Below, piece after piece: positions 1 to 2,014 of a stretch of DNA of 41,117 bases; positions within the stretch are counted from its first letter, which is position 1; each line of letters opens with the position of its first letter. This stretch comes from Candidatus Bipolaricaulota bacterium. Lineage in GTDB: Bacteria > Bipolaricaulota > Bipolaricaulia > RBG-16-55-9. The position numbers and the translations under genes were made by a program. The stretch is from NCBI GenBank assembly GCA_026982655.1, contig JALSGO010000148.1, positions 1-41,117 on the forward strand. The letters run 5' to 3'. The notes under the pieces were generated by a model. The model was given only the letters and a program-made list of their open reading frames with translations. It had not been told where the DNA came from and searched no databases.

Positions 1-54
1 GCGCAGCTTCTCGATGGGGTCGACCTTTCATCTCATCAAGAGGAGGTAGATACC

Positions 55-798
55 GTGTTGACATCGGGCGTACGGCGCGGTAGCGTAGCGGCGTTGGCGG
101 TGATGTTGCTGGCGCTGGTGGGACTTGCGGGTGGGACAGCGATGGTTCCGGCTCAAGCGCAGACTCTGGACGGCGGAACGGCGACGCTGACGCCCGGGCA
201 AGGCGCGAGCCCGCAGGAGGAGCTGCTGACCGAGGCGCTGGGGGCCCTGGTCGAAGCGGGCTACAACCCGGCGGACTTCGACTTCGAGAGGGCCGTGTTC
301 GATCCCCAAGGGCGGGCGGTCTTCCTACCAACAGACGAGATCGAACGGCGAGCGCAGGCGTTTGTGCAGAACGAGCAGCGCTTCCTCTTGATAGGGGTAC
401 TCTACGCCCGCCAGCCCTTCGAGTTCCAGGGGAAGCGCTATGGGCGGGGGGTGCATCCCGTGGTCCTAGAGAACCGCGCTGCATCCTTAGACCCTAAGGG
501 ACGGAAGAGTGCAGCTCGAGCCTTCCATGGGAACGAAGGCCCAGGGTACGATGGAGGTTCCTGTACCCATAATAGCAATAACGGAGACGTCATTTGCGTA
601 ACGGTTCTGGTCGGAGGCCCAGCACCGAATCCCGGCATAGCCGTTCCTCCTCCCCCGCCGCCGGGAGGACCGGGAGTTCTTCCTGGGGCCTGCGCTGCCT
701 TGGGGAGTGCAGCCCGATTTGCTCCTACCCTGGGAACGTTCGTCGTCATTGCTGGGGCCGTCACCGTAATCTGCATTCTGATCCCGTTAGCCTTCTAA
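55..798 (+). CDS. Secreted protein with proline-rich stretch and C-terminal membrane tail, unknown function
   Basis: I do not recognise the family. The GTG start follows a strong Shine-Dalgarno (AGGAGGT at 41-47, seven bases away). The 247-residue product begins with two arginines and a hydrophobic segment (about 11-30) ending in AQAQ near residue 36, which fits a cleavable signal peptide. The middle (about 50-180) is soluble, with a small cysteine pair (C170, C181). A proline run sits near 198-203, and the last 23 or so residues form one hydrophobic helix reaching the C-terminus without a basic tail. A cysteine (C212) precedes that helix. The next gene, 13 bases downstream, is a CPBP intramembrane protease, so this protein may be its substrate or partner. 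That is inference from adjacency and topology. Certainty is high for a real exported protein and low for its role. Confidence 0.72.
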   Translation: MLTSGVRRGSVAALAVMLLALVGLAGGTAMVPAQAQTLDGGTATLTPGQGASPQEELLTEALGALVEAGYNPADFDFERAVFDPQGRAVFLPTDEIERRAQAFVQNEQRFLLIGVLYARQPFEFQGKRYGRGVHPVVLENRAASLDPKGRKSAARAFHGNEGPGYDGGSCTHNSNNGDVICVTVLVGGPAPNPGIAVPPPPPPGGPGVLPGACAALGSAARFAPTLGTFVVIAGAVTVICILIPLAF

Positions 799-811
799 AG
801 AGGACTGCCGC

Positions 812-1753
812 GTGAGCCCGAAGCACCAGAGACGACCTACAGATACTGCAAGGGAACGGAACAACAACCGTTCCCTTGCTAACTTGCCCTCGCCTCTTCT
901 ACGCTTAGGGCTGTTCTACTTTTATTCGATCTCGCTAGCGGCCTTGGCCTCTACGATCCCAGAGGTTTCTTTGATTGATCTGCAGTTCCGCGTTGTACCT
1001 GTACCTATAAATGCAGCGTATCCTTTCTACACCTTAGGGGTGATTGTGCTCACGTGTTGGCTCATGACCTGCTGGATCGATCGGCGTCCCTTTAGCAGTC
1101 TGGGCCTTCGCCTGGGAGTACAGGTTGGAGCGTACCTCCTTCTAGGTTTCGGGACGGCGTTTGCTGCAAACGTATTGACGCGTTGGCTTATGATGGCAGC
1201 TTATTTGCAGGTCCCCGCTTGGCCGTTTTTTACACTCGTACCCGCAGAAGAACGTCCCTTCTCCCCGAGCACGCTGTTGGCCGTAGCCGTCTACGAAGAG
1301 CTTTATTTCCGCAGCTATGCTTTCCAGACCGTAATGGCCAGCCTAGGAACGGTGCCGGCCATCCTGGCCACCTCTGTGGCCTTTGGCATGATCCACGAGT
1401 CCCGACTGACGGGAGCACTGGCCGTGCTTTTGGGCATCTTCCTGAGCGCACTGTACATAAAGACACGGAGCCTCTGGATGCCTATCGGTTTTCACCTTGG
1501 TTGGAACGTCACAAGCACGTTTATAGGGATTCTCGGATTCGAAGGATCTATGGCGACAAAGTGGGAAGTCGTCTTGGCGAGTCATGCCTTTACTGTGGTC
1601 CTGCTCACCTTGCTGGTGCTAAGGCTGCCCCTCCGTCCTCACCCGCGCGACCGGGAGCTGTGGGATCGTTATGTCAAGCCCGCCCCTTGGCCCCCCTGGC
1701 GGCGGGCGAAAGAGGCCTCCTCCGTCCGAGCAGAACCCCAAAATCCTCGATAA
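812..1753 (+). CDS. CPBP-family intramembrane glutamic-type endopeptidase (CAAX/Abi-like)
   Basis: Polytopic membrane protein of 313 residues carrying the three CPBP (Rce1/Abi) signatures in order: EELYFR at 162-167 (EExxxR), FGMIH at 191-195 (FxxxH), and HLGWN at 228-232 (HxxxN). These line the active site in the family, whose members process prenylated proteins, bacteriocin or pheromone precursors, or C-terminal sorting tails. GTG start at 812 with AAAGAGGA seven bases upstream, 13 bases after the preceding gene, so the two are probably co-transcribed. Sampled stretches are near 52-53 percent GC, lower than the roughly 70 percent of the housekeeping genes, which suggests separate ancestry. 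The first 25 codons contain a strong hairpin (848-879), so a start further downstream cannot be excluded. Its specific target is unknown. Confidence 0.87.
   Translation: MSPKHQRRPTDTARERNNNRSLANLPSPLLRLGLFYFYSISLAALASTIPEVSLIDLQFRVVPVPINAAYPFYTLGVIVLTCWLMTCWIDRRPFSSLGLRLGVQVGAYLLLGFGTAFAANVLTRWLMMAAYLQVPAWPFFTLVPAEERPFSPSTLLAVAVYEELYFRSYAFQTVMASLGTVPAILATSVAFGMIHESRLTGALAVLLGIFLSALYIKTRSLWMPIGFHLGWNVTSTFIGILGFEGSMATKWEVVLASHAFTVVLLTLLVLRLPLRPHPRDRELWDRYVKPAPWPPWRRAKEASSVRAEPQNPR
848..879 (+). repeat. 12-bp perfect inverted repeat (strong hairpin) at the start of the CPBP gene
   Basis: Arms 848-859 and 868-879 are exact reverse complements with an 8-base loop (AACAACAA). The hairpin begins 36 bases into the reading frame and encodes residues of a charged, disordered N-terminus. 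No T-run follows, so it is not a classic terminator. It could slow translation, or act as a processing or mRNA-stability element between the secreted protein and the protease. Confidence 0.7.
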
Positions 1754-1775
1754 CATCTCTTTGCCTTATCGTTTT
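1748..1775 (+). terminator. Weak terminator-like hairpin after the CPBP gene
   Basis: CGATAA at 1748-1753 pairs with TTATCG at 1766-1771 across a 12-base loop, followed by TTTT. The stem is AT-rich and includes the stop codon, so this is a weak candidate. The rest of 1754-1885 shows nothing I can assign. Confidence 0.25.
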
Positions 1776-1885
1776 GCCCGTATTGACACGCAACGCGCGA
1801 CTTGACGGGATATGTAAGGGTACCCGATCCCAGCCAAGAGGGGTGAGAGAGGGAGGATCAGAGCTCAGGAACCGCTCTGGCTCAA

Positions 1886-1961
1886 TGGCTCCCCGGGGTG
1901 GACTCGAACCACCAACCTACCGGTTAACAGCCGGTCGCTCTGCCAATTGAGCTACCGGGGA
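1886..1961 (-). tRNA. tRNA-Asn (anticodon GTT)
   Basis: The reverse strand folds as a full cloverleaf of 76 nt. The acceptor stem is TCCCCGG/CCGGGGA, the D arm reads AGCTCAATTGGCAGAGC, the anticodon stem is ACCGG/CCGGT with loop CTGTTAA, and the T arm contains GGTTCGAGTCC. Anticodon GTT reads asparagine codons. The discriminator is G and the 3' CCA is encoded. It has its own consensus promoter about 25 bases upstream. Confidence 0.97.
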
Positions 1962-1985
1962 CCGTCGGGTTAAAGCTTTACGTAA

Positions 1986-2014
1986 AGTATAGCAAGCGCA
2001 CGGAACCGTGTCAA
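1986..2014 (-). promoter_or_regulatory. Sigma-70 promoter for tRNA-Asn
   Basis: On the minus strand TTGACA (2009-2014) is followed by a 17-base spacer and TATACT (1986-1991). This is nearly perfect consensus and is correctly placed for the tRNA that begins at 1961. Confidence 0.85.

What the first reader, a model, noticed from the sequence alone, without database searches (positions are those of the whole stretch)
55..1753. Possible dedicated CPBP protease and membrane-tailed substrate
A secreted protein ending in a proline run, a cysteine and a single C-terminal hydrophobic helix sits 13 bases upstream of a CPBP protease with intact motifs. Some CPBP members act as sorting proteases on C-terminal tails (for example MYXO-CTERM processing). 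Here the tail lacks the usual basic end, so it may be a new target type with one enzyme per substrate.
Basis: inference. Interest (0 to 1): 0.55.

Follow-up and report, generated by a model that had tools for sequence, protein, structure and literature searches.

The report
Variable secreted protein with membrane protease
In an uncultured group of bacteria, a fast-changing secreted protein sits just before a membrane-embedded protease, and related loci suggest the protease protects the cell from, or processes, that protein rather than recognising a special tail on it.

Summary
In detail: a 247-aa secreted protein (55-798) ends in a proline run, a cysteine and a C-terminal hydrophobic helix, 13 nt before a CPBP protease (812-1753) with intact motifs. 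The proposed tail-sorting pairing is not supported. I found seven uninterrupted family members with a readable neighbour (window included; six in its order of Bipolaricaulota). Five precede a CPBP gene (two separate clades), one a DUF3267 zincin, one a gluzincin-like protein. Only the window protein has the C-terminal helix: the pairing is conserved, the tail is not.

The secreted proteins share a domain of about 100 aa without known relatives; their C-termini mostly do not align. Two copies in one genome have 92% identical leader DNA but 30% identical domains and unrelated ends. In six cassettes the secreted gene is decayed or gone while the partner frame stays open; no accepted secreted gene lacks a partner, though one doubtful distant member does. 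Three loci scanned have a promoter-like site before the partner.

This resembles a polymorphic toxin with its immunity protein. Best reading (0.42): membrane-protease self-protection against a variable secreted antagonist. Dedicated maturation is the main rival. No function was tested.

The parts
1..54 (+). truncated 5' leader (contig begins here) with the ribosome-binding site; its last 25 or so nt match the stretch before the paralogue at G000:C95
55..798 (+). secreted protein, 247 aa: signal-peptide-like start, family domain of about 100 aa, variable C-terminus
157..489 (+). family domain (about residues 35-145, boundaries set by eye); residues 51-145 modelled with pLDDT near 80, no fold match
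490..798 (+). variable C-terminal region: Cys pair, PPPPPP, Cys213, C-terminal hydrophobic helix 221-247; differs from the paralogue G000:C95 and from the other members compared
799..811 (+). 13-nt gap; no promoter-like site found in window 1-2000
812..1753 (+). CPBP (PF02517) intramembrane protease, 313 aa, motifs EELYFR, FGMIH, HLGWN; C-terminal stretch ELWDRYVKPAPWPPW shared with the G006 partners

Best explanation
The locus is one copy of a fast-diversifying two-gene cassette. The first gene makes an exported protein with a constant domain and a variable C-terminus that probably acts on the membranes of competing or sister cells. The second gene makes a membrane-embedded protease that protects the producer, most simply by cleaving or holding its own secreted protein at the membrane. 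In the window, the variable end is a membrane-spanning helix and the protector is a CPBP glutamic protease. Shown: the pair, its recurrence, the variable C-termini, the different partner types, and open partner genes where the secreted gene is decayed or gone. Inferred: export, toxicity, immunity and cleavage.
For: (1) Seven of seven uninterrupted members with a readable neighbour (window included) are followed on the same strand by a membrane protease or protease-like gene: five CPBP, one DUF3267, one gluzincin-like. PF02517 has 48 matches in 18 of 19 genomes of the order, about 2.5 a genome, so chance adjacency should be rare (estimate). (2) CPBP partners fall in at least two clades: 3 label changes, 2 forced by well-supported branches, shuffled mean 8.5. 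Unrelated partners under one secreted family are usual for immunity genes (general knowledge). (3) Divergence rises towards the C-terminus: G014:C1 against C2 gives leader DNA 92% with gaps counted (91% by BLAST), signal peptide 70%, domain 30%, C-terminus Z=0.0. Window against C95: domain dN 0.06, dS 0.29; C-terminus (29 codons) dN 0.54, dS not computable. (4) Secreted gene decayed or missing but partner frame open: G001:C18 copy 1, G011:C42 (two cassettes), G007:C6, G007:C10, G012:C2. Among accepted members the reverse was not seen. (5) Promoter-like sites before the partner in three of three loci that I chose to scan: 12 of 12 in L081, 11 of 12 in G007:C6 and G006:C22, shuffles giving 0.1-0.3. 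(6) CPBP cores diverge more than their C-terminal 28-residue tails in five of six paired comparisons (closest two: 40% against 75%, 44% against 76%); two unpaired control pairs go the other way. (7) The three motifs are present in 9 of 9 paired CPBPs examined, with R to H in G001 and N to D in G006:C15. (8) CAAX/CPBP proteases are reported to confer bacteriocin immunity (PMC9298176, passages).
Against: No toxicity, export or immunity was tested. The secreted proteins have no convincing family match and no fold match. G036:C11 holds an uninterrupted 188-aa ORF that may be a distant member (E=0.038 in its genome; 13.9 bits) and is followed by a methyltransferase-like gene (named by eye); if it is a true member, a secreted gene can stand without a protease. 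Decay events are few and not independent: the CPBP cassettes of G011:C42 and G007:C10 are sisters and the gluzincin-like cassettes may share one history, so the asymmetry rests on perhaps three lineages. In G001:C18 copy 2 both genes are damaged. In G014:C2 against L081 the CPBP tail is not better conserved than the core (37% against 40%). Signal peptides are alike only in close pairs (Z below 1 in two of eight). In the window and in G001 copy 2 the protease follows after 13 nt, which also fits maturation by co-expression. The same paper reports CPBP proteases that process or regulate bacteriocins and found no immunity role for the one it studied. The gluzincin-like partner had one chance-level Pfam hit among three proteins scanned at E=10 and carries HExxE, not HExxH. 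The secreted proteins (145-250 aa) are larger than the bacteriocins that I recall as partners of CPBP genes.
Confidence: 0.42

Rival explanations
1. Dedicated maturation: the membrane protease cuts its neighbour's signal peptide or C-terminal region to release, anchor or activate it. In the window the cut would be at the C-terminal helix.
For: Close linkage, catalytic motifs present in 9 of 9 paired CPBPs examined and different protease classes all fit a need for proteolysis. CPBP enzymes do sort MYXO-CTERM proteins (PMC11980579, passages) and are reported to process bacteriocins (PMC9298176, passages). An end like the window tail survives in the G001 copy-2 remnant at the same 13-nt spacing (13 residues in a register set by eye: 169 of 100000 shuffles as good).
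Against: The C-terminal helix is absent in six of seven uninterrupted members. Partners persist where the secreted gene is gone. Separate promoter-like sites in three loci. Different enzymes would each have to learn the same kind of substrate.
Confidence: 0.28
2. Regulatory pair: the secreted protein is an extracytoplasmic regulator or inhibitor of the membrane protease, whose real substrates lie elsewhere (a signalling or stress system).
For: One shared secreted domain faces several protease types; the partner outlives the secreted gene, so it may have other work.
Against: Variable C-termini, and leader DNA far better conserved than the coding sequence behind it, are unusual for a regulator. 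No regulatory gene was seen to recur beside the cassettes in the listings read (by eye).
Confidence: 0.14
3. Neighbours without functional link: a drifting mobile or repeat-borne cassette kept together by its leader.
For: Duplicate, decayed and contig-edge copies are common, and transposase-like ORFs lie beside two of them, recognised by eye. G+C is 0.65 at the window's start, 0.61 over 401-800 and 0.54-0.58 over the CPBP. G036:C11, if a member, lacks the pairing.
Against: Pairing in seven of seven accepted uninterrupted members; purifying selection on the domain (dN/dS near 0.2 between the window and the decayed C95 copy); catalytic motifs kept.
Confidence: 0.11

Closest known systems
CPBP (Abi/CAAX) proteases linked to bacteriocins in lactic acid bacteria and streptococci
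   Same: CPBP gene beside a gene for a secreted, variable product; the family is reported to give immunity, to process, or to act as receptor or regulator (PMC9298176, passages; PMC8692603, passages).
   Different: There the products are small peptides under 10 kDa (PMC8692603), in clusters with export genes (recalled). Here it is a 145-250-aa protein with its own signal-peptide-like start, in Bipolaricaulota, and the protease type varies.
Polymorphic toxin and immunity systems
   Same: Constant part followed by a variable C-terminus, adjacent partner gene, partners left without a toxin (general features recalled).
   Different: No recognised toxin or trafficking domain; the partner is a protease rather than a typical immunity fold. 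Of PMC3482391 I saw the search listing and one passage.
MYXO-CTERM and myxosortase (MrtX), with Synerg-CTERM MrtS and JDVT-CTERM MrtJ
   Same: CPBP enzyme; in the window protein a Cys is followed by a C-terminal hydrophobic helix.
   Different: No basic end, no recurring tail across family members, NCBIfam models far below cut-off.
Daptide intramembrane metalloprotease (NF041824)
   Same: Weak match of the G003 DUF3267 partner (18 bits).
   Different: Cut-off is 300 bits; no daptide genes were looked for.

Membership tests
CPBP / PF02517 (Rce1-like) | Profile match above the curated cut-off | tested here: met
   64.2 bits against 22.4
CPBP / PF02517 (Rce1-like) | EExxxR, FxxxH and HxxxN/D motifs | tested here: met
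   EELYFR, FGMIH, HLGWN
CPBP / PF02517 (Rce1-like) | Proteolytic activity | not testable with these tools
   needs an assay
Myxosortase and other CPBP sorting systems (MrtX, MrtS, MrtJ) | Enzyme reaches the family model cut-off | tested here: not met
   MrtS 27.7 against 130, MrtJ 24.2 against 75, Mrt_core 15.9 against 100
Myxosortase and other CPBP sorting systems (MrtX, MrtS, MrtJ) | Tripartite tail: Cys signature, helix, basic end | tested here: not met
   Cys213 and helix 221-247 present, no basic residue at the end; definition from PMC11980579, passages
Myxosortase and other CPBP sorting systems (MrtX, MrtS, MrtJ) | Tail recurs among substrates | tested here: not met
   1 of 7 uninterrupted members has a C-terminal helix
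Toxin and immunity pair | Adjacent partner gene with every uninterrupted secreted gene | tested here: met
   7 of 7 accepted members with a readable neighbour; the doubtful G036:C11 would be an exception
Toxin and immunity pair | Constant part with variable C-terminus | tested here: met
   eight chosen pairs, 30 shuffles each: domain Z above 4 in 8 of 8, C-terminus Z at or below 2.1 in 7 of 8 (7.6 for window against C95)
Toxin and immunity pair | Partner kept after loss of the secreted gene, not the reverse | tested here: inconclusive
   six cassettes against none, but about three lineages, and G036:C11 is doubtful
Toxin and immunity pair | Toxicity and specific protection | not testable with these tools
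   needs expression tests

The most novel reading that the evidence does not exclude
A polymorphic secreted toxin family in an uncultured phylum whose self-immunity is delivered by interchangeable membrane-embedded proteases: two distant CPBP clades, a DUF3267 zincin and a gluzincin-like protein serve the same constant secreted domain, each matched to a different C-terminal end. Immunity would work by proteolysis in or at the membrane rather than by binding.
Probability: 0.33. Interest if true: 0.75.

Novelty: new variant of a known kind. Interest (0 to 1): 0.55.

Why it matters
CPBP proteases are very common and mostly without a known substrate (general knowledge). A family in which each enzyme sits beside its own candidate substrate, and in which different protease classes take the same place, makes the question of what these enzymes cut, and whether they protect or process, directly testable. 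It would also be evidence of antagonism in Bipolaricaulota. Four literature searches named this phylum or Acetothermia together with CPBP, CAAX, bacteriocin or immunity terms. One search, which required both Bipolaricaulota and bacteriocin, returned three papers with few mentions of each (4 and 1, 1 and 2, 1 and 1); none was opened. The others returned long lists of which only the top rows were shown, and none of the shown rows held the phylum name.

Tried and rejected
Tail-sorting reading: tested by finding relatives; it failed on the tail, not on the pairing. A single-protein scan of genome contigs with the CPBP confirmed nothing; an alignment found nine loci. Both models are shallow (five sequences; mean pLDDT 55.8 and 47.9); the second was not searched. 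Solved-structure sequence search: none. PADLOC, six proteins: only a 14.9-bit hit to 2TM-TIR for the window CPBP, judged chance. Rfam on five loci: only sub-threshold hits.

Rows dropped. At E up to 1 the last profile had hits in 13 of 100 genomes; I accept six (G000, G001, G003, G006, G011, G014). The weak-only genomes are G007, G012, G036, G059, G069, G076 and G090; weak extra hits in G001 and G006 were also left out. Five weak hits were opened (G001:C304, G007:C30, G006:C37, G069:C169, G036:C11), G012:C15 was fetched but not read, the rest not followed. G036:C11 stays undecided. G033 and G067 hits and the many weak hits were not followed, apart from G014:C1 and G000:C1. G003:C88 lies inside a 985-residue open frame and was judged unrelated. 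The G006:C15a fragment was assigned by eye (a GLYPVRV stretch), not by a search. Of the 48 PF02517 matches, 47 were examined (G001:C259, a 41-residue fragment, left out); G003:C249 gave no ORF with my finder; three more start at a contig edge and have no upstream gene. The truncated CPBP of G001:C18 copy 2 (stop after 146 codons, before the motifs) is in neither the tree nor the motif count. Leader copies at G016:C66 and a second one at G011:C11 have no partner behind them; the hit at G001:C15 (38 bits) was not followed. The second leader in L081 runs off the contig before its partner can be judged. The G003:C166 secreted ORF (145 aa) may be truncated; it is counted among the seven. The G006:C15a copy precedes a CPBP but is not counted. 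The leader identities leave gaps out and are too high; those replace them. The G001 row was read in a wrong frame and not used. A terminator scan found a T-run terminator in G007:C6 only, none in L081 or G006:C22.

Full report
Observation. The two ORFs are real and placed as described. The first gives 247 aa with a signal-peptide-like start, a six-proline run, four cysteines and a C-terminal hydrophobic segment at 221-247. The second, 13 nt on, is a PF02517 protease (E=1.4e-17) with EELYFR, FGMIH and HLGWN. The secreted protein has no Pfam or NCBIfam match. The window's genome has four PF02517 genes.

Relatives. A search of 60 genomes found matches in 3, its own included. Profiles built step by step (A2, A6, A8) over the 100 genomes held for the class and phylum gave the members I accept: G000 (C148, C95, C1), G001:C18 (two remnants), G003:C166, G006:C22 and C15b, G014:C1 and C2, G011:C11 and C42. 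G006:C15a, a 3' fragment at a contig edge, was assigned by eye. A CPBP-led scan of named genomes added L081, a contig filed under an archaeal bin but carrying the same leader and gene pair. The accepted members other than L081 lie in the window's order; the kinship of L081 is not told. G036:C11, elsewhere in the class, is a doubtful distant member (E=0.038; 13.9 bits).

What follows each secreted gene. For the seven uninterrupted genes with a readable neighbour: window, CPBP after 13 nt; G006:C22, CPBP after 140; G014:C2, CPBP after 92; L081, CPBP after 75; G011:C11, a CPBP of another clade after 121; G003:C166, a DUF3267 zincin overlapping by 4 nt (E=2.1e-21) and a second DUF3267 gene behind it; G014:C1, a 328-aa single-helix protein with HEAIE and WVGDGLAEY. 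Two proteins of that last family gave no Pfam hit at E=10 and a third only a chance-level one, so its protease nature is inferred from the motif, which I recall as gluzincin-like. The G006:C15a fragment also precedes a CPBP. The copy at G000:C95 has an in-frame TAG, a different end and about 110 nt before the contig stops. G006:C15b lacks its 5' part and has no protease directly behind it, though a CPBP gene lies upstream of it. G000:C1 is cut after 41 codons. G001:C18 copy 2 is a remnant followed by a CPBP frame that stops after 146 codons. G036:C11 is followed by a methyltransferase-like gene.

The tail. Only the window protein has a C-terminal helix. G011:C11 has a hydrophobic stretch at 175-208 followed by a Cys/Pro-rich end; the other five end without one. 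The second G001 remnant keeps the signal-peptide region and about 15 residues resembling the window's end, at the same 13-nt spacing, so the tail may be older than the window but is limited to its genus in what I saw.

How the family changes. In eight chosen pairs the domain aligns above shuffled sequence (Z 4.1 to 77.4). The C-termini do not in seven of eight (Z 0.0 to 2.1); the exception, window against C95, has Z 7.6. Signal peptides are alike in close pairs (Z up to 23) and not in two distant ones. In G014 the two copies share 92% of 154 leader columns, gaps counted, but 30% of the aligned domain. Between the window and C95 the domain has dN 0.06 and dS 0.29; the C-terminus, 29 codons, has dN 0.54 with dS not computable. 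Partner CPBPs partly mirror this: their 28-residue tails are better conserved than their cores in five of six comparisons (75 against 40, 76 against 44, 62 against 36, 59 against 34, 46 against 33) and not in G014:C2 against L081 (37 against 40); two unpaired control pairs show the reverse (54 against 66, 71 against 87). G+C is 0.65 at the start of the window, 0.61 over 401-800 and 0.54-0.58 over the CPBP.

Leader. In the G007, G011, G014 and L081 copies a leader of roughly 150 nt precedes the secreted gene: a G+C-rich hairpin, a strong ribosome site and a two-codon ORF (ATG, ACN or AGC, then stop). The hairpin has no two-sided covariation in five sequences, so structure is suggested, not shown. 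A strict pattern search found it in 3 of 19 genomes and a DNA search in 6 of 19, ten places, the weakest two doubtful. Following the leader and the profile exposed cassettes whose secreted gene is decayed or gone while the partner is open: G007:C6 (gluzincin-like), G007:C10 (CPBP), G011:C42 (CPBP and, after a second leader remnant, gluzincin-like) and G012:C2 (gluzincin-like). G001:C18 copy 1 is a sixth case. Among accepted members I saw no uninterrupted secreted gene without a partner.

Expression. Between the two genes lie folded hairpins in L081, G006:C22 and G014:C2. I scanned three loci in which I had noticed TTGACA, and the window. Promoter-like sites stand before the partner in L081 (12 of 12), G007:C6 and G006:C22 (11 of 12 each). 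In L081 and G007:C6 the -35 box lies inside the hairpin. The scan calls a T-run terminator in G007:C6 only. In the window no promoter-like site was found, so the two genes there are probably co-transcribed. These are consensus matches only.

Interpretation. A constant exported domain, a variable end, an adjacent partner of several families, partners that outlive the secreted gene, and separate expression of the partner in some loci together fit a secreted antagonist with an immunity protein better than a sorting substrate with its enzyme. CPBP proteases are reported to confer immunity, to process and to regulate bacteriocins (PMC9298176, passages), so maturation stays a live rival. That the partners look like proteases suggests that proteolysis matters in either case. 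Membership in the myxosortase group fails on tested features.

Limits. Most genomes are fragmented metagenome assemblies, so missing neighbours may be contig ends. The seven uninterrupted cases come from six genomes, and decay events are partly shared by descent. G003's secreted ORF may be truncated. G036:C11 would weaken the rule if it is a member; for it I lowered the main reading from 0.45 to 0.42. The fold of the domain is unknown: two shallow models agree on a helix followed by strands, and the one searched matches nothing. Nothing here tests toxicity, export or cleavage.

Noticed in passing
L066 860-1032, L080 3819-3993, L081 565-749 and 2839-2976, L098 4535-4705 (-), L123 3788-3954 (-), L193 1270-1440 (-), L173 2592-2714 (-): Conserved leader with a G+C-rich hairpin and a two-codon ORF (Met-Thr or Met-Ser, stop) behind a strong ribosome site; no Rfam match above threshold in the five loci searched.
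   Followed up: partly
L081 1371-1421; L138 1155-1104 (-): Promoter-like site whose -35 box lies inside the hairpin that separates the secreted gene from its partner, so a hairpin that could end one transcript overlaps the start of the next.
   Followed up: partly
L066 1818-2804, L138 147-1094 (-), L123 971-1933 (-), L198 137-1087 (-): Single-helix protein family with HEAxE and W(V/I)GDxLAEY and a nearly invariant C-terminal 50 residues; of three members scanned, none has a Pfam match above chance.
   Followed up: partly
L039 5978-6523: Second copy in the window's genome, 87% identical over residues 1-171, with an in-frame TAG and a different, shorter C-terminus.
   Followed up: yes
L126 1800-2366 (-) (G036:C11): 188-aa ORF with a signal-peptide-like start and a weak match to the secreted-family profile, followed by a methyltransferase-like gene; possible distant member without a protease partner.
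   Followed up: partly
L081 (CALIBN010000033.1): Contig filed under an archaeal bin but carrying the same leader, secreted gene and CPBP as Bipolaricaulota genomes; probably mis-binned.
   Followed up: no
L170, L172, L177, L180, L182, L183, L184, L188: Eight of the ten rows of a separate CPBP clade follow a UbiA/MenA-like prenyltransferase gene, the two ORFs overlapping in seven (gene named by eye).
   Followed up: no
window 1886-1961 (-): tRNA-Asn gene between the CPBP and SUF-type iron-sulfur cluster genes (SUF genes named by eye).
   Followed up: no
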